Both the position numbers and the translations under genes were made by a program. The notes under the pieces are model-generated. The model ran no database searches and had not been told where the DNA came from. It saw nothing but the letters and a program-made list of their open reading frames with translations. From assembly GCA_020404895.1 (NCBI GenBank), contig JADBWK010000063.1, positions 1 to 64,000 on the forward strand: a stretch of DNA of 64,000 nucleotides, written 5' to 3'. Position 1 is the first letter of the stretch, and the number at the start of each line of letters is the position of its first letter. The stretch comes from Pseudanabaena sp. M085S1SP2A07QC (GTDB lineage: Bacteria > Cyanobacteriota > Cyanobacteriia > Pseudanabaenales > Pseudanabaenaceae). Positions 1,456 through 29,538 of the stretch are shown here, one piece after another.

Positions 1456-1585
1456 ATTACTGTTTAGCAAGAACGAGGCTAATCCACTGTAGTGTACCGC
1501 ATAATCTACGGTAAACACATAGACATAACGTACTTTTGATGCTAGAAATATTTTAAATTACATAATTTTGATGCTGTGAGTCACA

Positions 1586-2593
1586 ATGAGCATTCTGGTT
1601 CAAGATATTACCAAGCAGTTTGGCGATTTTTTAGCAGTTGATAACGTTAGTTTGAAAGTAGAGAGTGATTCTTTGGTGGCTTTGCTAGGTCCATCAGGTT
1701 CAGGTAAGTCAACTCTCTTGAGAATTATGGCTGGTTTAGAGGCTCCCGATCGCGGTCAAGTTTGGATTGAAAATGAAGACGCAACTTACCGCTCAGTGCA
1801 AGAACGCCAGATCGGTTTCGTATTTCAGCACTATGCTTTGTTTAAGCATTTGACAGTGCGTAACAATATTGCCTTTGGCTTAAATATTCGTAAGGCATCT
1901 AAAAGCCTAGTTAAACAAAAGGTTGATGAATTGCTGGACTTAATCCAACTCAGAGGATTGGGCGATCGCTATCCATCTCAACTATCGGGCGGTCAGCGGC
2001 AGCGCGTAGCTCTGGCGCGATCGCTAGCAGCGCAGCCCAAAACGCTCCTGCTCGATGAACCCTTCGGCGCATTGGATGCTAAGGTACGGAAGGAGCTACG
2101 CACATGGCTCCGTCAACTTCATGAACAAGTTCATGTGACCACAATTTTTGTAACCCATGACCAAGAAGAAGCGATGGAAGTCGCCGATCAGGTGGTGATT
2201 ATGAACAATGGCAGAATTGAACAAATTGGCACACCTGCCGAAATCTATGATCAACCAGCTTCTGAATTTGTAATGCGCTTTATCGGCGAGACTAACATTA
2301 TCTCTAGCGCCCGTCGCCATTTCCCCGATCTTGAAATTGCAGATCATCATCAAGTATTCTTGCGTCCCCACGATCTGGCGATTAGAGCCGAACCAGAAGA
2401 AACCTTTGCCCCTGCAACTGTCAGCTATGCCTTTAATCTCGGTTGGGAAGGTCAAGCAGAATTAGTATTGTCAGACAACCAAAAGTTGATTGTAAAGTTG
2501 GAACGCGATCGCTTTGACAGTCTCTCGCTCTATCCCCAAAAAGAAGTCTATGTCAAACCTCTAAAAACCAAAATCTTTGCTGAAGTTGCTTAG
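1586..2593 (+). CDS. cysA: Sulfate/thiosulfate ABC transporter ATPase CysA
   Basis: This 335-residue ABC ATPase has a Walker [10 protein letters not shown] at residues 35-43, a signature [13 protein letters not shown], Walker [20 protein letters not shown] and a switch His in [13 protein letters not shown]. The C-terminal third is a TOBE-like regulatory domain, giving the usual CysA length. It energises sulfate uptake together with SbpA (periplasmic binding) and CysT/CysW (membrane). Those permease genes lie 24 kb away at 26-27.8 kb rather than next to cysA, which is unusual. Assignment to sulfate rather than another CysA-like substrate rests on family resemblance plus the neighbouring cysR, cysK and sbpA. 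Confidence 0.9.
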
Positions 2594-2632: not shown

Positions 2633-3205
2633 CTAAATTTCATAATGCCATTGTTCAGTAGACTCTGCCAAAAATCTGAGCTTGCGTCCTTTACGAGACA
2701 AGAACCCAATCTTCTCAAGATCATTGATAATGCGCGTGACTGTGACGCGAGTAGAGCCGATTAATTCCGCGATTTCTTGATGGGTTAATTGCAGACCGAT
2801 CAACCTGCCATGACGCTGATCGTCTTCACCAAAGCGATCAGTCAGCCAAGCTAATAACAACCTTAAAGCCTCATCTTTAGCTCGGCTATGGGCAATTTTC
2901 AACAAAAACTCACTGGTTTGGTTACGACGGATAATCACATCGACATGATCGCCCCACTCCGATCGCGGGATTTCTATTAACTGCACATCCGTTAGGCATT
3001 CCATTTCATGAGGATGCAAGTTAGATAATTCACTGCCAATGAGATCGCCCTCAGCCCATAAACCTGAGCAAATTACTTGACCATCCTCATTCCATGTGAG
3101 CGATCGCACCACGCCCGACTCAATTTTCCAGAGGTAATTAGTTTTGCGAGGTAGCATTTCACGACGCTTATAGGTAGTGCCAGTGGTCTTTTCAAGATAA
3201 ATCAT
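2633..3205 (-). CDS. cysR: Crp/Fnr-family regulator, CysR-like
   Basis: About 190 residues. The N-terminal cyclic-nucleotide-type beta-roll (LWKIESGVVRSLTWNEDGQVICSG...) is followed by a winged helix-turn-helix near the C-terminus (LTHQEIAELIGSTRVTVTRIINDLEK). CysR, known from Synechococcus elongatus, is a Crp-family protein needed for growth on alternative sulfur sources and is encoded among the sulfate permease genes. The location between cysA and cysK fits that role. I chose ATG 3205 (MIYLEKTTG), since the longer frame starts inside the control region shared with cysK. The shared two-part element of the divergent region begins only 17 bases upstream of this start, so autoregulation is plausible. 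Confidence 0.8.
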   Translation of the reverse strand: MIYLEKTTGTTYKRREMLPRKTNYLWKIESGVVRSLTWNEDGQVICSGLWAEGDLIGSELSNLHPHEMECLTDVQLIEIPRSEWGDHVDVIIRRNQTSEFLLKIAHSRAKDEALRLLLAWLTDRFGEDDQRHGRLIGLQLTHQEIAELIGSTRVTVTRIINDLEKIGFLSRKGRKLRFLAESTEQWHYEI

Positions 3206-3221
3206 CAGATACCCTATCGAC

Positions 3222-3298
3222 AAACAGTAGATTTTATTTGTATTACGTTGAAAAGTATTGTATCTTACTAAGTACGGTATTCCCACGAAGTTACCGTA
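3222..3298 (+). promoter_or_regulatory. Two-part sulfur control element in the cysR/cysK divergent region
   Basis: Box 1 is AAACAGTAGATTT at 3222-3234. A TATTGTAT sequence that could be a -10 box follows at 3256-3263. Box 2 is the palindrome TACGGTA-N12-TACCGTA at 3273-3298. The same order and near-identical spacing (51 bases from box 1 to box 2) recur upstream of both sbpA genes and of ssuD. The orientation points toward cysK. That this is an operator is inferred from conservation. Confidence 0.75.
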
Positions 3299-3355: not shown

Positions 3356-4318
3356 ATGAAAATTGCTCAAAATATTACGCAACTCATCGGCGGTACGCCC
3401 CTCGTTGCTCTCAATAACATCCCTAAAAAAGATGGTTCTCTCGCCAAAATTGTCTTGAAATTAGAAAGTATTAATCCTTCTTCTTCTGTTAAGGATCGTA
3501 TCGGCTTAGCGATGATTGAAGATGCTGAAGCTCAAGGTTTGATTAGTCCTGCCAAAACTATATTGGTGGAGCCAACTTCGGGTAACACAGGGATTGCCTT
3601 AGCAATGGTGGCGGCGGCTAAGGGCTATCGTTTGATTTTGACTATGCCTGAAACTATGAGCTTAGAACGCCGAGCTATGCTCAGAGCCTATGGTGCAGAG
3701 CTAGAGTTGACCAATGCTAGTGAAGGGATGCGTGGCGCGATTCGGCGGGCTGGAGAAATCGCTAGTTCTACGCCCGATGCTTATATGCTGCAACAGTTTA
3801 ATAATCCAGCCAATCCTGCTGTGCATCGGCGCACCACTGCGGAAGAAATTTGGAATGATACGGATGGGCAAGTGGATATTGTGATTGCGGGTGTGGGAAC
3901 TGGCGGCACGATTACTGGGGTTGCTGAAGTGATTAAGCAGCGTAAGCCGAGTTTTAAAGCGATCGCTGTGGAGCCATTAAATAGTCCTGTGTTAGCTGGT
4001 GGTACACCAGGAGCGCATCGGATTCAAGGCATCGGGGCAGGATTTATCCCCCAAGTTTTACGCACGGATTTGATTGACGAAATTATTGGTATTTCTGATG
4101 ATGAGGCGATCGCTTACGGTCGTCGCTTAGCCCGTGAGGAAGGTTTACTATCAGGGATTTCGTCAGGTGCAGCTCTTGCGGCGGCGATCGCTGTGGGCAA
4201 GCGGGAAGAAAATCGCGATCGCTTAATAGTGGTAATTCAACCAAGTTTTGGTGAGCGCTATCTTAGTACACCTCTATTCCAAGAAGTTGAATTTGCGACT
4301 TCTGCTTCTACTAGATAA
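3356..4318 (+). CDS. cysK: Cysteine synthase (O-acetylserine sulfhydrylase)
   Basis: A 320-residue fold-type II PLP enzyme that makes L-cysteine from O-acetylserine and sulfide. The PLP lysine lies in [11 protein letters not shown] (Lys46). The substrate loop [11 protein letters not shown], the phosphate-binding [10 protein letters not shown] and the SGISSGAA motif are all intact. Length and motifs are those of CysK/CysM. It is the first gene downstream of the regulatory element at 3222-3298, and a CymR-like Rrf2 regulator follows 89 bases later. In firmicutes CymR forms a complex with CysK, so this enzyme may double as a sensor of cysteine status. That second role is inference. Confidence 0.93.
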
Positions 4319-4407: not shown

Positions 4408-4842
4408 ATGGAACTATCTTGTAAGGTGGATTACGCCTGTATTGCTCTGATGCAATTAGCTATACGTCATGGACAAGGACAACCAATATCCGTTAACGAA
4501 ATTGCTCATAGTCAAAATATTCCTATTCGCTACCTCGATCAAGTCATGGGAATGCTAAGGAGAGCAGGTATTATTAATAGTCAAAGGGGAGCCAAAGGAG
4601 GCTATCACCTTGCTCAAGAACCTTGGCAAATTAAAATCATTGACGTAGTGATTGCTCTTAATGGTAACGACTATAGAGAATCTCCAAACGAAAACCTAAC
4701 CACACCTGAGAAGTCTGTAATCTTGGATATGCGAGAGCTTGCAAGAAAAGGGGCTGCTGATGTTTTGAGCAATCACACTTTAGAAGATTTAGTGAGAAAA
4801 TGTGAGGAGAAAAAACGTTCCGATATCATGTTCTATATTTGA
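4408..4842 (+). CDS. Rrf2-family regulator, CymR-like
   Basis: This 144-residue Rrf2 winged-helix protein has an N-terminal HTH (ISVNEIAHSQNIPIRYLDQVMGMLRRAGIINSQRG) followed by GGYHLAQEP. It lacks the three-cysteine cluster that binds Fe-S in IscR and NsrR. It therefore resembles CymR, the firmicute repressor of cysteine metabolism, which works as a complex with CysK. It sits directly after cysK and ends in the tetrapeptide MFYI. A C-terminal isoleucine is how serine acetyltransferase inserts into the CysK active site, and as I recall B. subtilis CymR has the same ending. Regulation of the local sulfur genes is inference from context. I have left the symbol blank because cyanobacterial members are poorly characterised. 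Confidence 0.8.
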   Translation: MELSCKVDYACIALMQLAIRHGQGQPISVNEIAHSQNIPIRYLDQVMGMLRRAGIINSQRGAKGGYHLAQEPWQIKIIDVVIALNGNDYRESPNENLTTPEKSVILDMRELARKGAADVLSNHTLEDLVRKCEEKKRSDIMFYI

Positions 4843-4933: not shown

Positions 4934-6115
4934 CTATCGCTTGATTTTGGCTTGAATTTGGTCAAAGGCTGCGCCATCAGCAAAGAATTTCTTATTGATG
5001 GCATCCCAACCACCAAGATCCTTGACGGTTGAAAGATTTTTAACCACAGGATAAAGCTCAACAAATTGCTTTTCCTTGGCTACAGTTTCATCAACAGGAC
5101 GAAATCCAACCTTGGCAAATTCAGTTTGAGCTTCAGGAGAATATAGGAATTTCACAAAGGCTTCGGCGACTTCCTTAGTGCCATGCTTAGCAGTATTTTT
5201 ATCAACCACAGCGATCGGATTATCGATAGAGAAGTTAATTTCGGGAATTACATAATTAACCTTAGTTCCTTTTTGGGAAGCAAGAATGATTTCATTCTCA
5301 TAGTTAATCAGGGCATCGCCTTGACCTTGTTTAAAGAAAGCATCAGTAGCTTCTCTAGCATCTTTAGTCAGAATCGGTACATTGGTATATACCTTAGTTA
5401 ATGCTTCTAAAGCCTTTTCATCACTACCACCTTTCTTAAAAGCAGCATTCCAGAGGGCAAGGAAGTTCCATCGAGCTACACCTGATGTTTTAGGATCAGC
5501 CGTAATTAGGCTAATGCCATCTTTCTCCAGATCAGCCCAGTCTTTAATGCTCTTGGGATTGCCATCGCGAGTTACAATCACAGGCACAGACTTAGAAACG
5601 ATGCCATCATTGGGATATTCTTGTTCCCAGCCTTTGTCAATTAGTCCAGCTTTTTCGATTTTACTAGTATCAGCCGCTAGCGCCAGATGGACAATATCGG
5701 CTTCAAGTCCATCAATGACTGCACGAGTTTGAGAACCTGAACCACCATAACTTTGTTTAAAGGTAACTTTTTGGTTTTGTTCTTTTTGCCATTTCTCGAC
5801 AAATTTAGGAATAATTGCTTCGTGAGCCTGCTTAGTTACAGCAAAAGACACAAGAGTTAGTTCAACATCCTTTTTGGGTGTGCCTGCGGGTGATGCTGCT
5901 GTAGTTGTTTTGGACGCAGGACTACCTGCGGTAGGAGGAGGCGTAGGTGTGGTAGCAGTGCAGGCTGCCATGGTGACGCTGATGAGTGCGCCTGCAAGAA
6001 AGAAGGAAATAAATTTACGTGCAAACTGACGGCTAAATGTATTGCTGATTAGACTAGCGATCGCTTGAATTGCCGATTTGGACTTACCCAAAGGCTGCTG
6101 ATACCTTGAACTCAT
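4934..6115 (-). CDS. sbpA: Sulfate-binding lipoprotein SbpA (copy 1)
   Basis: This 393-residue periplasmic sulfate-binding protein has an N-terminal basic region, a hydrophobic stretch and a lipobox (SVTMAAC, Cys52), then a Thr/Pro-rich linker and the binding domain. SbpA-family signatures include TLVSFAVTKQAHEAIIPKF, QSYGGSGSQTRAVIDGLEADIV and GVARWNFLALWNAA. The mature protein contains no methionine and no cysteine other than the lipidated one, a sulfur-sparing composition expected of a protein made in bulk during sulfur starvation. It is nearly identical in its binding domain to copy 2 at 24805-25989. The upstream control element is also conserved between the two copies. Confidence 0.93.
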   Translation of the reverse strand: MSSRYQQPLGKSKSAIQAIASLISNTFSRQFARKFISFFLAGALISVTMAACTATTPTPPPTAGSPASKTTTAASPAGTPKKDVELTLVSFAVTKQAHEAIIPKFVEKWQKEQNQKVTFKQSYGGSGSQTRAVIDGLEADIVHLALAADTSKIEKAGLIDKGWEQEYPNDGIVSKSVPVIVTRDGNPKSIKDWADLEKDGISLITADPKTSGVARWNFLALWNAAFKKGGSDEKALEALTKVYTNVPILTKDAREATDAFFKQGQGDALINYENEIILASQKGTKVNYVIPEINFSIDNPIAVVDKNTAKHGTKEVAEAFVKFLYSPEAQTEFAKVGFRPVDETVAKEKQFVELYPVVKNLSTVKDLGGWDAINKKFFADGAAFDQIQAKIKR

Positions 6116-6140: not shown

Positions 6141-6217
6141 TACGATATCTTAGTGGGATTACCGTATTTAAACACAATACAATAATTTTGAATAATGCAC
6201 AAAAAAATCTACGGTTT
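6141..6217 (-). promoter_or_regulatory. Two-part sulfur control element upstream of sbpA1
   Basis: Read on the minus strand, AAACCGTAGATTT (6217-6205) is followed by TATTGTAT and then TACGGTA-N12-TATCGTA (6166-6141). The palindrome ends 25 bases before the sbpA1 ATG, the same distance as at sbpA2. Confidence 0.8.
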
Positions 6218-6403
6218 ATACGTTGGGTATTTGTAGATTTTTTTTAGCATTGGTTGAATTTAAGTAGTTTTCAAGCTAATCAATTGAGTATGTGCAGCAG
6301 CAATTGGAGTATTTATTTCATTTTCGTCGGTATGACATAGAGATTGCAGTAAAAATTTATCTTTAAAATCTCCAATATTCAAATCATCTAAATCTTTGTG
6401 TGT

Positions 6404-6484
6404 AAACCGTACATTTGTTGATCTTATGTAATTGTTTATGTAATACTCTCTTAATAACTACGATTTCACCGTGTATTTACCGTA
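6404..6484 (+). promoter_or_regulatory. Two-part sulfur control element upstream of ssuD
   Basis: AAACCGTACATTT (6404-6416) is followed 55 bases downstream (start to start) by TACGATT-N12-TACCGTA (6459-6484), 21 bases before the ssuD start. The whole 390-base gap 6116-6505 appears to be the divergent control region of sbpA1 and the ssu genes, and I see no gene in it. Confidence 0.75.
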
Positions 6485-6505: not shown

Positions 6506-7687
6506 GTGCAGGTTTTTTGGTTTATTCCTACCCATGGTGATGGACGCTATCTGGGAACAAGTGTTGGCGGACGCTCAACCGATCTGAGCTACCTTCAACA
6601 AATCGCCCAAGCTGTCGATCGCCTTGGATATGTGGGCGCACTTTTGCCAACGGGGCGCTCCTGCGATGATGCGTGGGTAGTTGCATCATCATTGATAGCT
6701 GTTACGCAACGCATGAAGTTTTTGGTTGCTGTGCGTCCAGGACTAATGTCCCCAGGGGTAGCGGCAAGAATGGCGGCAACTTTCGATCGCCTATCGGGTG
6801 GTCGGTTATTAATTAACGTCGTCACAGGCGGCGATCCTGTGGAATTAGCGGGCGATGGCTTACACCTCGGTCACACAGAAAGATACGAATTAACCGATGA
6901 GTTTTTGACCGCTTGGCGTGAAATCTGTTCGGGAACTTCTGATTTTAAAGGTGAATACTTAGATATTCGTGATGGCAAATTGCTATTTACACCAGTTCAA
7001 AAGCCCCATCCTCCACTTTGGTTTGGTGGATCGTCTGAAATTGCCCAAAAAATAGCCAGTAAACATATTGACACCTATCTCTCGTGGGGTGAGCCGCCTG
7101 CACAGGTTGCCGAAAAAATTAATGCTGTTAAAAAACTCGCCGATCAAGAGGGAAGAGAGATTAAGTTTGGTATCCGTCTCCATGTCATTGTGCGTGAGAC
7201 GAAGAGCGAAGCTTGGGAAGCTGCCAATAATCTGATTCGCTATGTTGATGAAGCATCTATCCAAAAAGCGCAACAGGTTTATGCCCGTATGGATTCCGTT
7301 GGACAGCAACGGATGTCTCAATTGCATGGCGGCAAACGTGAGAATTTAGAAATCAGTCCCGATTTGTGGTCAGGGGTTGGCTTGGTACGTGGCGGCGCAG
7401 GAACAGCCCTTGTGGGAGATCCTGACACGATCGCTAAGAGAATGCAGGAGTATGCGGATATTGGCATTGAGAGCTTTATTTTCTCTGGCTATCCCCATTT
7501 AGAAGAAGCCTATCGCGTTGCCGAGTTGTTATTCCCTCGATTGCCTTTGGATCATGTTCCCGATCGCGATCGCCAAGTGATGACAGGACCTTTCGGTGAG
7601 ATTTTGGCTAATGATGAGCTTCCCCAGACGGTTAAGCCCATTCAAAACAAATCTCCTTCCAAAGAACTTCAACCAACGGTGGATTAA
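6506..7687 (+). CDS. ssuD: FMNH2-dependent alkanesulfonate monooxygenase
   Basis: A 393-residue bacterial-luciferase-type monooxygenase that cleaves alkanesulfonates to aldehyde and sulfite using FMNH2 from SsuE. The GTG start gives [18 protein letters not shown], the typical SsuD N-terminus. [17 protein letters not shown] and [19 protein letters not shown] are further family motifs. AGGAGA lies 5-10 bases before the start. It is the first gene of a long same-strand series, and its stop codon abuts the ATG of ssuC. A sulfur-type control element lies just upstream, so induction by sulfur limitation is expected. Confidence 0.93.
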
Positions 7688-11256: not shown

Positions 11257-12981
11257 ATGACTATTTCTGATCACAATATCAAAACTCAACGCCTCATCAC
11301 CGATGTCCTTGTCATTGGTGGCGGTACGGCTGGCACTATGGCAGGAATTAAGGCAAAACAAGCGAATCCCGATCGCGATGTCTTGATTCTCGAAAAAGCA
11401 AATATCCGTCGTAGCGGTGCGATCGCGATGGGTATGGATGGAGTTAATACCGCCGTCATCCCTGGAAATTCTACGCCAGAGCAGTATGTGCGTGAAGTGA
11501 CATTGGCTAATGATGGCATTGTCGAGCAGAAGACAGTTTATCAAACGGGTAAGCTGGGTTTTGAAGTGATTAAAGAATTAGAAAGTTGGGGTGTGAAGTT
11601 TCAAAAGGATGCTCAAGGAGAATACGACCTCAAGCAGGTGCATCGCATCGGTAAATATGTGTTACCTATGCCTGAAGGGAAAGATCTAAAAACAATTTTG
11701 GCGCGGCAAGTGAAGCGTCATAAGGTTCGGGTCACTAATCGGGTGATGGCAACGCGGGTCTTAGTGGAAAATGGTCGGGCGATCGGCGCAGTTGGTTTTG
11801 ATGTTCGTAGTGGCGATTTTGTCGTCATCCAAGCAAAAGCGGTGATTCTCTGTACGGGAGCCTCTGGCAGATTAGGATTGCCTGCTTCGGGCTATCTCTA
11901 TGGAACCTACGAGAATCCTACCAATGCAGGCGATGGCTACTCGATGGCTTACCACGCAGGTGCGGAACTCTCGAATATTGAATGCTTCCAAATCAATCCT
12001 CTGATCAAGGATTACAATGGTCCCGCCTGTGCTTATGTTGCAGGACCTTTTGGCGCACATACGGTGAATGCGGAAGGACATCGCTTTATTAATTGTGACT
12101 ATTGGAGTGGTCAGATGATGCTAGAGGTCTGGAAAGAACTGAACTCTGGTAAAGGACCTGTGCAGCTAAAAATGACCCACCTCGATCCTGACACGATTTC
12201 GGAAATTGAATCGATCATGTGGTCAAATGAACGCCCCAGTCGTGAGCGATTTCATGCGGGGCGAGGTGAAGATTATCGCACTCACGGAATTGAGATGAAC
12301 ATTTCCGAAATTGGACTATGTAGCGGTCACAGTGCTTCGGGAGTGTGGGTAAATGAACGCGCCGAAACTACGGTAGCAGGACTATATGCGGCAGGTGACA
12401 TGGCGAGTGTGCCGCACAATTACATGATCGGTGCGTTTGTGTTTGGCAGAATTGCGGGAATTGAGGGTATGAAGTATAGCGAAAATCTGGAACACGTTGA
12501 GCCAAATTTCGAGTTTTTGGAAGCTGAGAAAGAACGAATTTATGCTCCGTTAACGCGACCTAATGGAGTTCCGCATACGCAAGTGGAATATAAATTACGC
12601 CGTTTGGTGAATGATTATCTACAACCACCAAAGTCTACAAACAAGATGGAGATTGGCTTAGGACTATTCGATCGCTATCAAGAAACTCTCGATATTATGG
12701 GCGCTCAAGATCCCCATGAATTAATGCGTTGTATGGAAGTGCATTTCATTCGCGATTGTGCAGAGATGGCGGCGCGGGCTTCGCTATTTCGTAAGGAGAC
12801 AAGATGGGGACTTTATCATTATCGGTTGGATTATCCAGAGAAGAATAATGATGAGTGGTTCTGTCATGTCAATTTGAAGAAGGATGAATCGGGACAAATG
12901 ACGCTATTTAAGCGTGAGGTTTCGCCTTACATCATTCCTGTTGATGTGCGTCAAGAAGTTTATGATGTCGCAGTTCGATAA
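11257..12981 (+). CDS. AprA-like FAD flavoprotein of the fumarate reductase/APS reductase alpha family
   Basis: A 574-residue flavoprotein with an N-terminal dinucleotide motif DVLVIGGGTAGTMAGIKAK (16-34). The segment RRSGAIAMGMDGVNTA resembles the SGAVAQG...INT stretch of adenylylsulfate reductase alpha. The late FAD motif is TTVAGLYAAGDMASVPHNYMIGAFVFG. A 75-residue ferredoxin with an AprB-like second cluster motif follows. In dissimilatory sulfur bacteria AprAB interconverts APS and sulfite plus AMP, a pathway not expected in an oxygenic cyanobacterium. The location inside a sulfonate operon suggests a redox step on an organosulfur compound or sulfite. I cannot identify the substrate, and catalytic residues need a structural alignment. 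The general family is secure. Confidence 0.85.
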   Translation: MTISDHNIKTQRLITDVLVIGGGTAGTMAGIKAKQANPDRDVLILEKANIRRSGAIAMGMDGVNTAVIPGNSTPEQYVREVTLANDGIVEQKTVYQTGKLGFEVIKELESWGVKFQKDAQGEYDLKQVHRIGKYVLPMPEGKDLKTILARQVKRHKVRVTNRVMATRVLVENGRAIGAVGFDVRSGDFVVIQAKAVILCTGASGRLGLPASGYLYGTYENPTNAGDGYSMAYHAGAELSNIECFQINPLIKDYNGPACAYVAGPFGAHTVNAEGHRFINCDYWSGQMMLEVWKELNSGKGPVQLKMTHLDPDTISEIESIMWSNERPSRERFHAGRGEDYRTHGIEMNISEIGLCSGHSASGVWVNERAETTVAGLYAAGDMASVPHNYMIGAFVFGRIAGIEGMKYSENLEHVEPNFEFLEAEKERIYAPLTRPNGVPHTQVEYKLRRLVNDYLQPPKSTNKMEIGLGLFDRYQETLDIMGAQDPHELMRCMEVHFIRDCAEMAARASLFRKETRWGLYHYRLDYPEKNNDEWFCHVNLKKDESGQMTLFKREVSPYIIPVDVRQEVYDVAVR

Positions 12982-20398: not shown

Positions 20399-21574
20399 AT
20401 GACTCAAGATTATTTAGAAATTGCCACTGCATACGTTAAAAAATTAGCGGCTGAATTTGCGACAACCTCTATAGAACGCGATAAAAATGGTGGCACACCT
20501 AAATATGAACGCGATCGCATTCGGGATAGTGGCTTACTCAAAATAGCGATACCGAAAGCCTATGGTGGTTGGGAATTACCTTGGCATGAAGTATTTAAAA
20601 TCAGTCGTGAATTTGCCAAAGTTGATAGCGCAATCGCCCATGTCTATTCCTACCATCATTTAGGAGTAACAATTCCGCATATCTTTGGTTCTGAAGAACA
20701 GAAAGAAAAATTCTATTTGGAAACAGTCAACAGTAATTGGTTTTGGTGCAATGCGCTCAATCCTCTAGATAGAAGGGCAACCCTGACGAGAGATGGCGAT
20801 ATCTGGCGATTGAATGGTGCTAAAAGTTTCTGCTCTGGTTCTATCGATTCTGATATCTTACCGATCGCTGCCGTTAATCAAGACACTAATACCTTAACGG
20901 TTTTAGCAATTCCCACAAATCGTATAGGCGTTACCGTTCATGACGATTGGGATAACATCGGGCAACGTCAAACTTCTAGCGGTACTGTCAGTTTTGAGCA
21001 AGTACAGGTATTTCCCCAAGAAATATTTGGCGATCGCAGTCAAAGCGATCTCCCATTTAAAACAATTCGTGCTTGTCTAACCCAATTAAATTTAGCGAAT
21101 ATTTATCTAGGAATTGCGATTGGCGCTTTTGAAGCCGCAAGGGAATATACCCAGACAGAAACTAGACCTTTTATTAGTTCAGGTGTAGATAATGCGACTC
21201 AAGATCCGTACATATTAGAAAAGTATGGTGATATGTGGGTACATCTCCAAGCTACAGAAGCACTCACCGATCGCGCAGGACTAGCATTACAAGCAGCGTG
21301 GGAACAGAAATGGGATCTCACAGAGCAACAACGAGGCGAAACGGCGATCTCGATCGCTACGGCAAAAGTTGCAGCGCATAAAGTCGGGTTAGAGGTAACC
21401 AATCGCATTTTTGAAGTGATGGGCGCGAGATCAACCTCTGCTAAATATGGTTTTGATCGATATTGGCGCAATTTACGCACTTTCACGCTGCATGATCCTG
21501 TGGAATACAAAATTAAAGCGATCGGTGATTGGGCGTTAAATCATCAAATTCCTAAACCTGATTTCTATATCTAA
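20399..21574 (+). CDS. DszC/SfnB-like flavin monooxygenase (acyl-CoA dehydrogenase fold)
   Basis: This 391-residue acyl-CoA-dehydrogenase-fold protein has the C-terminal signature RYWRNLRTFTLHDPVEYK. That signature is typical of DszC, SfnB and related flavin-dependent desulfurisation enzymes rather than true acyl-CoA dehydrogenases. Members use reduced FMN to oxygenate sulfur compounds. The middle domain starts near WFWCNALNPLDRRATL. It closes the long sulfur gene series, just before a strong terminator, and SsuE could provide its FMNH2. The substrate is unknown; sulfones or organosulfides are reasonable guesses. Confidence 0.85.
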   Translation: MTQDYLEIATAYVKKLAAEFATTSIERDKNGGTPKYERDRIRDSGLLKIAIPKAYGGWELPWHEVFKISREFAKVDSAIAHVYSYHHLGVTIPHIFGSEEQKEKFYLETVNSNWFWCNALNPLDRRATLTRDGDIWRLNGAKSFCSGSIDSDILPIAAVNQDTNTLTVLAIPTNRIGVTVHDDWDNIGQRQTSSGTVSFEQVQVFPQEIFGDRSQSDLPFKTIRACLTQLNLANIYLGIAIGAFEAAREYTQTETRPFISSGVDNATQDPYILEKYGDMWVHLQATEALTDRAGLALQAAWEQKWDLTEQQRGETAISIATAKVAAHKVGLEVTNRIFEVMGARSTSAKYGFDRYWRNLRTFTLHDPVEYKIKAIGDWALNHQIPKPDFYI

Positions 21575-23617: not shown

Positions 23618-24646
23618 GGCTCAATAGGTGTTTCGGGGAGGTAAAGAGAGTAGTGAGTCTAGCAAAGCACTCAGCAAAGCTTTGCCCCTCCTCTTGGCAT
23701 TATGAACAAACTCAAAGAAGCTCCAATACAAAGGTAACTTTTCTTGAGAAATACCACGATGAGGTCGTAACCAAGAGCGTAAAAGCGACCAGAAGCCTTC
23801 TATTGTATTGACATAAACTTCTCAAAAGCCATCACCATCTTCATCTCTTGCATATTCTCCCACTCCATGACAAACAGATTTGTGAGCATAGCCCCAAACT
23901 TGTAAAGGGTAATAGATAGCATATTCGTCAGTGTAAACCATAGTACCAAGAGCAATCGTTGCTTTAATCAGAGGCTCAATAGTCCGTTGTTGAACGTTTT
24001 CCATCATGCGAATTACCACTTCACCACCACGCTGAATCATGCCGAAGATGGGTGGTTTTTCTTTTTCAAGTGTCCCCCGCCCCCCCTTGAGGCGATTACG
24101 TCTTCCTTTGCGACTTTTTTTAACTGCTTCGGAGTTGCCTTTGTGTCCTGCTGTCACATATACCTCGTCACACTCGACTGTGCCAGATAAGTTTACTTCA
24201 GGCTTACTTAGGTCAATACCTTCTCTCAATTGGGTGGTCATATCTTGCACCACATCCTTATCTAGGTCTAGTTCTTGGGCAATTTGTCGGTTTGAGAGGT
24301 TTAATCCCATCAAGTATAGGCACAATATCCACATCCGTAGTGGTTGATGGTGTCCTGCAAATATTGTGTCGGTTAAATCGTCAAAGTTAATGCTGCAAGT
24401 TTTACACTGGTATCGTTGACGGGCAGGTTGTGTTTCATCTTTGCCTCGCTTGATTACCTCTGTACTTTTACATTTTGGACAACTTACTCCTCCTGTCCAT
24501 CTCATCTGACGAACTGTTTCGTAACATTTTTCATCATCAATTAGATGGGTTAAGTTCACACTCAGCATAGTGTTGCTGCTTCTGGATTTCGCTACAATTT
24601 TATCAATTTCTCCCTTTCTTTACTTCCCCGAATCACCTATTGAGCC
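23618..24646 (-). mobile_element. IS1595-family (ISXO2-type) insertion sequence
   Basis: Terminal inverted repeats GGCTCAATAGGTGTTTCGGG (left) and GGCTCAATAGGTGATTCGGG (right, reversed) bound a 1029-base element with a single transposase frame. I could not find an obvious 8-base target duplication. It lies just upstream of the sbpA2 control region. Confidence 0.85.
23621..24568 (-). pseudogene. IS1595-type transposase interrupted by a stop codon
   Basis: Residues 1-248 contain a zinc-ribbon (CPKCKS...CKTC) and a DDE-type catalytic domain (TVECDEVYVTAGHKG, MVYTDEYAIYY). After DEDGDGF an in-frame TGA occurs at 23822-23824. Reading through it gives EVYVNTIEGFWSLLRSWLRP and HRGISQEKLPLYW, the expected C-terminal part with its catalytic Glu, ending at 23621. 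The element is therefore probably inactive on its own. Confidence 0.85.
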
Positions 24647-24701: not shown

Positions 24702-24779
24702 AAACCGTAGATTTTACTTGCGTCTTGCCCAAAAGTATTGTATGGTGTTTAAATACGGTAATTACATCAAGATATCGTA
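24702..24779 (+). promoter_or_regulatory. Two-part sulfur control element upstream of sbpA2
   Basis: AAACCGTAGATTT (24702-24714), TATTGTAT (24736-24743) and TACGGTA-N12-TATCGTA (24754-24779) lie in the same order and spacing as at sbpA1. GGAGG (24791-24795) and the GTG start at 24805 follow. Confidence 0.8.
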
Positions 24780-24804: not shown

Positions 24805-25989
24805 GTGAGTTCAAGACAACATCCTTTTAGCAATTCAAAACTTGGGATCAAGGCGATCGCTTGCTTATTTGGCAATATATTTAGTCATAAATGGGGACGT
24901 AAATTTGTCTCTTTCTTCTTGGCTGGTGCATTGATCAGTGTCACGATGGCAGCTTGCACAGCCACTACCGACACCAAACCCACAGCAGCAACTAGCCCAA
25001 CAACAGGTGGTAGTCCTGCCGCTCAAACCAAACCAGCAGGCGAACCTAAAAAGGATGTTGAATTAACCCTTGTATCTTTTGCTGTAACCAAACAAGCCCA
25101 CGAGGCAATTATCCCTAAATTTGTCGAGAAATGGCAAAAAGAACAAAACCAAAAAGTTACTTTTAAACAAAGCTATGGTGGTTCAGGTTCACAAACCCGT
25201 GCTGTAATTGATGGACTAGAAGCTGACATTGTTCACCTCGCTCTTGCAGCTGATACTAGCAAAATTGAGAAAGCAGGCTTGATCGATAAAGGTTGGGAAA
25301 AAGAATACCCTAACGATGGAATTGTCTCTAAATCTATTCCAGTACTAGTGACCCGCGATGGAAATCCTAAAAACATTAAGGATTGGTCAGATTTAGAAAA
25401 AGATGGCATTAGCCTAATCACCGCCGATCCTAAAACTTCGGGTGTGGCTCGTTGGAACTTCCTCGCTTTGTGGAATGCCGCAGTCAAAAAAGGCGGTAGC
25501 GATGAAAAAGCGCTAGAAGCATTGACAAAAGTATATACAAATGTGCCAATTTTGACCAAAGACGCCAGAGAAGCTACCGATGCTTTCTTTAAGCAAGGTC
25601 AAGGCGATGCATTGATCAATTATGAAAACGAGATTATTCTTGCTTCTCAAAAGGGTCAGAAGGTTAACTACGTCATTCCTGATGTGAATTTCTCCATTGA
25701 TAATCCGATCGCTGTAGTTGATAAAAATGTCGCAAAACATGGAACCAAAGAAGTCGCAGAAGCTTTTGTGAAATTCCTTTATTCGCCTGAAGCCCAAACT
25801 GAATTTGCTAAAGTTGGTTTCCGTCCTGTAGATGAGACTGTGGCTAAAGAAAAACAATTTGTCGATCTTTATCCTAAAGTAAAAGATCTTTCAACCGTTA
25901 AAGATCTTGGTGGTTGGGATGCGATCAACAAAAAATTCTTTGCTGATGGCGCAGCTTTTGACCAAATTCAATCAAAAATTAAGCGTTAG
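24805..25989 (+). CDS. sbpA: Sulfate-binding lipoprotein SbpA (copy 2)
   Basis: A 394-residue GTG-started protein, nearly identical to copy 1 through the binding domain. It differs mainly in the signal peptide and Thr/Pro linker. Lipobox SVTMAAC is followed by TLVSFAVTKQAHEAIIPKF and QSYGGSGSQTRAVIDG. Apart from the lipid Cys, the mature part has neither Met nor Cys. It heads the sbpA-cysT-cysW gene set, the classical permease order, and is preceded by the same control element as copy 1. The copy-1 duplicate lies 19 kb away in the opposite orientation. Confidence 0.93.
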   Translation: MSSRQHPFSNSKLGIKAIACLFGNIFSHKWGRKFVSFFLAGALISVTMAACTATTDTKPTAATSPTTGGSPAAQTKPAGEPKKDVELTLVSFAVTKQAHEAIIPKFVEKWQKEQNQKVTFKQSYGGSGSQTRAVIDGLEADIVHLALAADTSKIEKAGLIDKGWEKEYPNDGIVSKSIPVLVTRDGNPKNIKDWSDLEKDGISLITADPKTSGVARWNFLALWNAAVKKGGSDEKALEALTKVYTNVPILTKDAREATDAFFKQGQGDALINYENEIILASQKGQKVNYVIPDVNFSIDNPIAVVDKNVAKHGTKEVAEAFVKFLYSPEAQTEFAKVGFRPVDETVAKEKQFVDLYPKVKDLSTVKDLGGWDAINKKFFADGAAFDQIQSKIKR

Positions 25990-28554: not shown

Positions 28555-28595
28555 AACAAAAAAGAGTGAATGCAAAGCATTCACTCTTTTTTGTT
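28555..28595. terminator. Bidirectional terminator between tRNA-Cys and the LysR gene
   Basis: A perfect inverted repeat of 19-base arms (AACAAAAAAGAGTGAATGC) surrounds AAA. It reaches into the LysR stop codon from the other strand. Confidence 0.88.
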
Positions 28596-29538
28596 ACCAA
28601 GTAGTATCTTCAGCAATCTGTTTCCCTTCAGTCTGCAAATATTCCAAAAAAGTCTGAGCTACGACCGATAACTGCTTACCAGCGAGATGAATAACATACC
28701 AGTTACAAGGGATCGGAAAATGCTCCACATCCAAAACCGCAATCTGACCCGAAGCGCCCTCTAAAGCGATCGTATGTCGCGACAAAACTGAGATTCCTAG
28801 ACCACCTGCGATCGCCTGTTTAATCGCCTCATTACTTGCAAGCTCCATTTTTATTTTCGGAGTAACTTTATGCTCATCAAATAGCCTTTTTACATATCCC
28901 CTTGTACCAGAGCCAGACTCTCTGGTGATAAATGGTTCATCTGCCAACTTTTGAATGGGAATATTTTTCTCGTTAGCCAAATGATGATCGTGACTTGCTA
29001 GAACCACTAATGGGTTTGACAAAAACTGATGAGACGTTACATCTGGCTCATCAGGAACTTGACTAAGAATATATAAATCATCCTTATTCTCAGCAAGCCT
29101 CTCTAAAACACCGCTATGGTTAGTTACCTTCAAAGATATTTCTACCCCAGGATAACGCTGACAAAATGGTCCCAGTAAACGCGGGATTACATATTTTGCT
29201 GTTGTTACCACCGTAATCTTTAAATATCCCTGTTTTAGTCCTTTCATATCGGCAACACTCATCTCAAATTGAGATATGCGACCAAATATCTCTTGACAAG
29301 TTGCAAACAACTCTCGACCAGCCTGAGTTAAAAAAAGTTTTTTGCCCACCTGCTCAAACAAGGGCATCCCGATTGCCTTTGTCAAATGCTTAATCTGCAT
29401 CGAAACAGTGGGTTGTGTTAGAAATAGCTCCTCGGCGGCACGAGTATAGCTGCCATGACGAGCCGCTACTTCAAAGACCTGCAACTGATGCAGGGTGATA
29501 TGAGTAGCTAATTGAGCATCAGATAGGCGGTAACTCAT
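28594..29538 (-). CDS. LysR-type regulator of the CbbR/RbcR/CmpR group
   Basis: A 314-residue LysR protein: N-terminal HTH ITLHQLQVFEVAARHGSYTR plus AAEELFLTQPTVSMQI, then a PBP2 effector domain (YLKITVVTTAKYVIPRLLGPF). The HTH is typical of the CbbR/RbcR/CmpR group, which controls carbon fixation and inorganic carbon uptake. A 13-residue extension precedes the usual start, and no ribosome-binding site is visible because a long palindrome occupies that place. Which of RbcR, CmpR or CcmR it is cannot be settled from sequence alone. Confidence 0.88.
   Translation of the reverse strand: MSYRLSDAQLATHITLHQLQVFEVAARHGSYTRAAEELFLTQPTVSMQIKHLTKAIGMPLFEQVGKKLFLTQAGRELFATCQEIFGRISQFEMSVADMKGLKQGYLKITVVTTAKYVIPRLLGPFCQRYPGVEISLKVTNHSGVLERLAENKDDLYILSQVPDEPDVTSHQFLSNPLVVLASHDHHLANEKNIPIQKLADEPFITRESGSGTRGYVKRLFDEHKVTPKIKMELASNEAIKQAIAGGLGISVLSRHTIALEGASGQIAVLDVEHFPIPCNWYVIHLAGKQLSVVAQTFLEYLQTEGKQIAEDTTW

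What the first reader, a model, noticed from the sequence alone, without database searches (positions are those of the whole stretch)
6141..6484. Shared two-part promoter element at four sulfur promoters
AAAC(C/A)GTA(G/C)ATTT followed 51, 51, 52 and 55 bases later by TACGRTA-N12-TAYCGTA occurs upstream of cysK (3222-3298), sbpA1 (6141-6217, minus), ssuD (6404-6484) and sbpA2 (24702-24779). The ssuD left half-site is TACGATT, one base off. A TATTGTAT-like -10 sequence lies between the boxes in three of them. Box 2 would then fall at or just after the transcription start, as for a repressor, and box 1 upstream, as for an activator. CysR (Crp type) and the CymR-like Rrf2 protein are the two local candidate regulators.
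Basis: partly seen in the sequence, partly recalled or inferred. Interest (0 to 1): 0.8.

Follow-up and report, generated by a model that had tools for sequence, protein, structure and literature searches.

The report
Shared sulfur-gene operator in cyanobacteria
A 26-base palindromic DNA switch sits at the start of nearly all sulfur-uptake and cysteine genes in this cyanobacterium and its relatives, probably read by a CymR-like repressor that teams up with the cysteine-making enzyme CysK, which would say how these photosynthetic bacteria sense sulfur shortage.

Summary
Box 2 (TACGRTA-N12-TAYCGTA) has four exact matches in this Pseudanabaena genome, all at sulfur genes, and none for the reversed control. 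Others precede tauE, rhodanese, cysE, ssuA and ssuC genes in this and related genomes. At sbpA, box 2 is conserved in 26 of 26 Pseudanabaena genomes, and the same operator marks sulfur genes in other cyanobacterial families.

Box 2 covers or directly follows the likely transcription start, a repressor position. The best candidate binder is a CymR-type Rrf2 protein: one occurs in all 26 Pseudanabaena genomes and all 38 motif-bearing outgroup genomes. In two other families rrf2 is directly followed by cysK. All 53 sequences compared end in M(F/Y)YI, the tail of Firmicute CymR, linked to CysK binding.

CysR is equally well associated across the class and remains a rival or partner, but box 2 persists in Pseudanabaena genomes lacking its ortholog. 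Box 1 lies just upstream of the -35 region, either a degenerate second operator or an activator site. Binding itself is untested.

The parts
1507..1532 (+). Box 2 operator upstream of cysA (not in the finding): TACGGTAAACACATAGACATAACGTA
   Evidence: conserved at cysA in G018, G011, G001, G022, G004, G015, G019, G021, G023
3222..3234 (+). Box 1 of cysK (and divergent cysR): AAACAGTAGATTT; within a possible degenerate 26-mer operator 3204-3229 flanked by aatc/gatt
3238..3243 (+). putative -35 TTGTAT of cysK, 17 bp from -10-like TATCTT (3261-3266); assignment is weak
   Evidence: sequence; one search lists it among several equal candidates
3273..3298 (+). Box 2 operator of cysK / cysR: TACGGTATTCCCACGAAGTTACCGTA, about +1 to +26 if the promoter above is right
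   Evidence: conserved in 12 orthologous promoters
6141..6166 (-). Box 2 operator of sbpA1 (reads TACGGTAATCCCACTAAGATATCGTA toward the gene), just upstream of the ribosome-binding site
   Evidence: present at sbpA in 26/26 Pseudanabaena genomes
6205..6217 (-). Box 1 of sbpA1: AAACCGTAGATTT; degenerate 26-mer 6210-6235
   Evidence: 6210 is the sixth-best operator match in the window by weight matrix, at a score within the noise
6404..6416 (+). Box 1 of ssuD: AAACCGTACATTT
6459..6484 (+). Box 2 operator of ssuD: TACGATTTCACCGTGTATTTACCGTA
   Evidence: identical in G018
24702..24714 (+). Box 1 of sbpA2: AAACCGTAGATTT
24754..24779 (+). Box 2 operator of sbpA2(-cysT-cysW): TACGGTAATTACATCAAGATATCGTA
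2633..3205 (-). CysR, Crp/Fnr-family regulator (likely start 3205); shares the intergenic region with cysK
   Evidence: Pfam HTH_Crp_2 7e-13; orthologs >=78% in 17 of 26 Pseudanabaena genomes
3356..4318 (+). cysK, cysteine synthase
   Evidence: ORF; named from the sequence and its conserved neighbourhood, no family scan run on it
4408..4842 (+). CymR-like Rrf2 regulator, C-terminus ...IMFYI, downstream of cysK
   Evidence: Pfam Rrf2 2.6e-31; NCBIfam CymR 2.2e-26 but below cut-off; tail shared with solved Firmicute CymR
1586..2593 (+). cysA, sulfate ABC transporter ATPase
   Evidence: TIGR00968 1.5e-123
4934..6115 (-). sbpA1, sulfate-binding protein
   Evidence: TIGR00971 4.3e-77
6506..7687 (+). 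ssuD, FMNH2-dependent alkanesulfonate monooxygenase; first gene of an ssu cluster
   Evidence: TIGR03565 1.4e-182
24805..25989 (+). sbpA2, followed by two ABC permeases taken as cysT (26072) and cysW (26943)
   Evidence: ORFs; sbpA2 88% identical to sbpA1; permease names from sequence and context

Best explanation
Box 2 is a 26-bp palindromic operator (TACGGTA-N12-TACCGTA with a conserved inner part; outgroup form TACGGTAAnTCGATCRAnTTACCGTA) covering or directly following the transcription start of sulfur-acquisition and cysteine genes. SHOWN: the operator, its sulfur-gene placement and its conservation across cyanobacterial families. INFERRED: it is bound by a dimer of a CymR-type Rrf2 protein (the universal paralog and, where present, the cysK-linked paralog). 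When sulfur is plentiful, CysK docks on the Rrf2 C-terminal M(F/Y)YI tail and the complex holds the operator and blocks transcription. When sulfur is short, O-acetylserine accumulates, CysK lets go, and transporters, sulfonate enzymes, cysK and cysR are switched on. CysR, itself an operator target, probably acts as a second-layer activator. Box 1, just upstream of the -35 region, is either a degenerate second operator or an activator site.
For: Operators beside cysA, cysK/cysR, sbpA, ssuD, ssuA, ssuC, tauE, rhodanese, cysE and a sulfatase-modifying enzyme gene in Pseudanabaena, and beside ssuD, cysK, sbpA, ssuA, tauE and cysR in other families. sbpA operator in 26/26 genus genomes whatever the CysR or local-Rrf2 status, while an Rrf2 of this type is in all 26. 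All 38 motif-bearing outgroup genomes carry an Rrf2 (p 2.5e-5); two or more Rrf2 copies raise motif frequency from 16/299 to 22/53 (p 4.6e-11), and within CysR-positive genomes from 15/125 to 21/50 (p 2.4e-5); CysR+ Rrf2- genomes 0/12 (not corrected for relatedness). rrf2 directly followed by cysK in seven genomes of two other families, and an operator-like site (some weak) ending 41 bp before the rrf2 start in five genomes of one of them. All 53 Rrf2 sequences end MYYI or MFYI; Firmicute CymR does too, its C-terminal isoleucine is noted among CysK partners (PMC12895370, PMC4961446), and the known CymR regulon covers cysK and ssu genes with CysK/O-acetylserine control and a cymR-cysK gene pair in Clostridium (PMC3828012). 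A 26-bp operator suits Rrf2 dimers (general knowledge of IscR/CymR sites).
Against: No binding or expression data. CysR shows an equally strong class-wide association (36/38 motif genomes; p 3.9e-10), and operators often precede cysR. Genomes with an Rrf2 but no CysR outside the genus have essentially no exact operators (2 sites against 7 for the control). The local Rrf2 falls far below the NCBIfam CymR cut-off (92.6 against 195 bits), and its tree position relative to the other-family cysK-linked Rrf2 is unresolved. The universal Rrf2 gene's own promoter shows only a half-site-like match. In Synechocystis this paralog (slr0846) is, from memory, linked to photosystem genes.
Confidence: 0.6

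Rival explanations
1. CysR (Crp/Fnr family) is the direct binder of box 2 (and perhaps box 1); Rrf2 is only a neighbour.
For: Motif presence tracks CysR across the class (36/175 with, 2/177 without; p 3.9e-10). Operators sit upstream of cysR in several families. CysR is the genetically established regulator of sulfate-assimilation genes in Synechococcus elongatus (PMC12016511).
Against: Box 2 at sbpA is kept in all 9 Pseudanabaena genomes lacking the CysR ortholog (two of the nine hold a ~44% CysR-like paralog). Half-sites 19 bp apart do not suit a Crp-type dimer, whose half-sites lie about one helical turn apart (general knowledge). cysR being a target would also produce the association.
Confidence: 0.22
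2. Two-regulator promoter: box 1 bound by CysR as activator, box 2 by Rrf2 as repressor. (This overlaps the best explanation on box 2 and differs only in fixing the role of box 1.)
For: Box 1 lies directly upstream of a -35-like hexamer, an activator-like position. Both regulators contribute statistically. Box 1 core (<=2 mismatches) at the main sbpA gene in 11 of 17 genomes with CysR against 3 of 9 without.
Against: That difference is weak and the genomes are related. The 26-mer ending in box 1 is flanked by aatc/gatt as at many box 2 sites, with the same 26-bp length, in cysK, sbpA and ssuD, suggesting one binder. Six genomes with CysR lack box 1 at the main sbpA gene.
Confidence: 0.3
3. Box 2 acts in RNA: the inverted repeat in the leader forms a hairpin that controls translation or termination.
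For: Box 2 lies in or near the transcribed leader; the arms can pair, and at the variable position G-U occurs more often than A-C (13 against 4). The cysK leader folds somewhat better than shuffles (z -2.0).
Against: sbpA1, sbpA2 and ssuD leaders fold no better than shuffles, and two of them do not form the stem. The spacer, which would be the loop, is sequence-conserved and itself palindromic, as expected of a protein operator.
Confidence: 0.05
4. Another, unidentified sulfur regulator (for example a LysR-type protein) binds the operator.
For: LysR-type genes lie in this window (28594-29538) and beside the tauE operon on C132.
Against: A 26-bp site with 7-bp outer arms is not the usual LysR T-N11-A site (general knowledge). 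Only one outgroup operator locus showed a LysR gene nearby (L176), but the genomic profile of LysR genes was not tested.
Confidence: 0.1

Closest known systems
CymR-CysK regulon of Firmicutes (Bacillus subtilis, Staphylococcus aureus)
   Same: Rrf2 protein without the IscR cluster cysteines, C-terminal M(F/Y)YI tail, gene next to cysK, regulon of cysK, sulfonate (ssu) and sulfur-transport genes, repressor role (PMC3828012, PMC5480029)
   Different: Different phylum; operator sequence TACGGTA-N12-TACCGTA (the Firmicute consensus could not be compared here); regulon centred on sulfate and sulfonate transport; coupled to the cyanobacterial regulator CysR; a second Rrf2 paralog is widespread
CysR regulation of sulfate transport in Synechococcus elongatus PCC 7942
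   Same: CysR gene lies among sulfate transport genes and controls them (PMC12016511)
   Different: No binding site for CysR was found in the papers searched; here cysR is itself an operator target, and box 2 survives in Pseudanabaena genomes without the CysR ortholog
IscR and other Rrf2 operators
   Same: Rrf2 winged-helix family; palindromic sites of about 25-27 bp (general knowledge)
   Different: Different sequence, different regulon, no Fe-S ligands

Membership tests
Rrf2 transcription factor family | Rrf2 winged-helix domain | tested here: met
   Pfam PF02082 109 bits, cut-off 30
CymR (NCBIfam NF047409 equivalog) | score above the curated cut-off | tested here: not met
   92.6 bits against 195; so it is filed as CymR-like, not as CymR
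CymR (functional sense) | C-terminal isoleucine tail able to dock in CysK | tested here: met
   MFYI/MYYI in 53 of 53 sequences; docking itself not tested
CymR (functional sense) | no Fe-S cluster ligands of the IscR type | tested here: met
   local Rrf2 has Cys 5, 11, 132 only, universal paralog Cys 126, 132
CymR (functional sense) | genetic linkage to cysK and a cysteine/sulfonate regulon | tested here: met
   linkage; regulon membership is by operator placement, not by expression
CymR (functional sense) | DNA binding strengthened by CysK and relieved by O-acetylserine | not testable with these tools
   needs biochemistry
Crp/Fnr operator (CysR as box 2 binder) | half-sites about one helical turn apart | tested here: not met
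   half-sites are 19 bp apart centre to centre; rule from general knowledge
Crp/Fnr operator (CysR as box 2 binder) | operator lost when CysR is lost | tested here: inconclusive
   nearly absent outside the genus without CysR (2/177 genomes), kept at sbpA within the genus

The most novel reading that the evidence does not exclude
Most cyanobacteria outside the small-genome lineages carry a CymR-CysK type sulfur sensor: Rrf2 proteins with a CysK-docking tail control a class-wide sulfur regulon through one 26-bp operator and also drive CysR, which would give cyanobacteria and Firmicutes the same cysteine-sensing logic and supply the unidentified sensor above CysR.
Probability: 0.35. Interest if true: 0.75.

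Novelty: new variant of a known kind. Interest (0 to 1): 0.6.

Why it matters
No binding site or sensor for the cyanobacterial sulfur-starvation response was found in the papers searched; only CysR is known genetically. A class-wide operator with a named candidate repressor and a proposed signal (O-acetylserine through CysK) turns that question into a gel-shift experiment. It also predicts regulon membership of poorly annotated genes (tauE-type exporters, rhodanese) from sequence alone.

Tried and rejected
Box 1 as an independent motif: not specific at 2 mismatches. First box 1 alignment script used a wrong offset range; corrected. RNA hairpin reading: weak. A tight link of box 1 to CysR: tested at sbpA in all 26 genomes, not convincing. 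Orthology of the Pseudanabaena cysK-linked Rrf2 to the other-family rrf2-cysK Rrf2: unresolved long branch. Published CymR consensus for a sequence comparison: not obtained from the held library. No paper linking Rrf2 to sulfur regulation in cyanobacteria was found. The C125 one-mismatch hit lies at the 3' end of a fabF-like gene and is taken as chance.

Full report
OBSERVATION. The four two-part elements are present at the stated coordinates and spacings. In the window, box 2 occurs five times at up to two mismatches against 0.37 expected. The fifth copy (1507-1532) precedes cysA and was missed. In the whole genome (4.8 Mb, 190 contigs) there are four exact copies, three in the window and one before a tauE operon on contig C132; the reversed control has none. 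A two-mismatch copy precedes a rhodanese gene on the same contig. With a weight matrix from genus sites the five window sites score 22-36 while shuffled windows peak at 8. The matrix includes three of these sites, so that margin is partly built in.

SURROUNDINGS. The window is a sulfur island: cysA, cysR, cysK, an Rrf2 gene, sbpA1, an ssu cluster with SsuD, SsuE and SsuA-type proteins, and sbpA2 with two permease genes.

CONSERVATION IN THE GENUS. Of 26 Pseudanabaena genomes 21 have at least one exact box 2, and none of the other family members searched does. Nearly all sites lie directly upstream of sulfur genes: cysA, cysK/cysR, sbpA, ssuD, ssuA, ssuC, tauE-type, rhodanese, cysE and a sulfatase-modifying enzyme gene. 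A few precede genes with no obvious sulfur role. When each sbpA promoter was read directly, box 2 or a close variant was found in all 26 genomes; in G007 the automatic scan missed it near a contig end, but it is visible in the printed sequence.

CLASS-WIDE. In 390 cyanobacterial genomes, 38 of 352 outside the family have exact sites (68 sites against 20 for the control). The outgroup loci fetched show the sites beside ssuD, cysK, ssuA, sbpA pairs, tauE operons, nitroreductase/ssuB and cysR; roughly a third had no sulfur neighbour recognised by comparison with the window's proteins. Outgroup consensus: TACGGTAAnTCGATCRAnTTACCGTA.

ANATOMY. In cysK, box 1 sits directly upstream of a -35-like TTGTAT, 17 bp before TATCTT, which ends 6 bp before box 2; similar but weaker arrangements fit the other promoters, and several alternative hexamers score equally. 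At cysA and tauE a TATAAT-like sequence abuts box 2. In these readings box 2 covers the start or lies just after it. The transcription start is not mapped. In cysK, sbpA and ssuD promoters the 26-mer ending at AACCGTA of box 1 carries the aatc/gatt flanks seen at many box 2 sites, 68-73 bp upstream of box 2. Its left arm is poor, so box 1 as a second operator is only a suggestion. A GATTTTATTTGTAT-like stretch just after box 1 is kept at most sbpA genes even where box 1 is lost.

WHICH PROTEIN. Local CysR orthologs are in 17 and full-length local Rrf2 orthologs in 13 of 26 genomes, yet box 2 at sbpA is universal, as is a second Rrf2 of about 40% identity. Across outgroups the motif associates with CysR (p 3.9e-10), with any Rrf2 (p 2.5e-5) and with two or more Rrf2 genes (p 4.6e-11); among genomes with CysR, extra Rrf2 copies still matter (p 2.4e-5), and genomes with CysR but no Rrf2 have none (0/12). 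The handle lists for that test were transcribed by hand, and related genomes are not independent. In seven genomes of two other families rrf2 is followed immediately by cysK; in five genomes of one of them an operator-like site, some weak, ends 41 bp before the rrf2 start, and sites also lie upstream of cysR in several genomes. Part of those loci were chosen because their genomes had motif hits. All 53 Rrf2 sequences compared end in MYYI or MFYI (two of the 53 are Firmicute CymR references), as do the full-length solved CymR chains. The literature notes C-terminal isoleucine peptides, CymR among them, as CysK partners, and CysK stabilises CymR on DNA until O-acetylserine rises (PMC12895370, PMC4961446, PMC3828012).

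CONCLUSION. The operator and its sulfur regulon are well supported by comparison. The Rrf2-CysK mechanism is the best reading but inferred. CysR remains either the alternative binder or, more likely, a partner under the operator's control.

Noticed in passing
L053:10001-10186 and G003:C20:214012: Pseudanabaena sp. FACHB-1998 (and G003, apparently the same genome) carries only the first ~62 residues of the cysK-linked Rrf2 (92-94% identical), an apparently decayed copy, yet its cysK operator is intact.
   Followed up: partly
window 23822-24568 (-): A transposase-like ORF lies directly upstream of the sbpA2 promoter; sbpA2 may have been moved or duplicated with its operator.
   Followed up: no
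window 11257-12981 and 20399-21574: A flavoprotein of the fumarate reductase/APS reductase alpha type and an SfnB/DszC-like monooxygenase lie in the sulfonate cluster, suggesting wider organosulfur use.
   Followed up: no
sbpA promoters of the genus, L192-L221: GATTTTATTTGTAT and AAAGTATTGTATGGTATTTAAA-like stretches are conserved even where box 1 is lost; they may be promoter elements or a further regulator site.
   Followed up: partly
L172-L174, L179, L180, L183 (outgroup loci): rrf2, cysK, cysR and in most of them cysE cluster together in one other family, a compact cysteine-regulation island.
   Followed up: partly
window 28594-29538 (-): LysR-type regulator near the sbpA2-cysT-cysW genes, not analysed further.
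   Followed up: no
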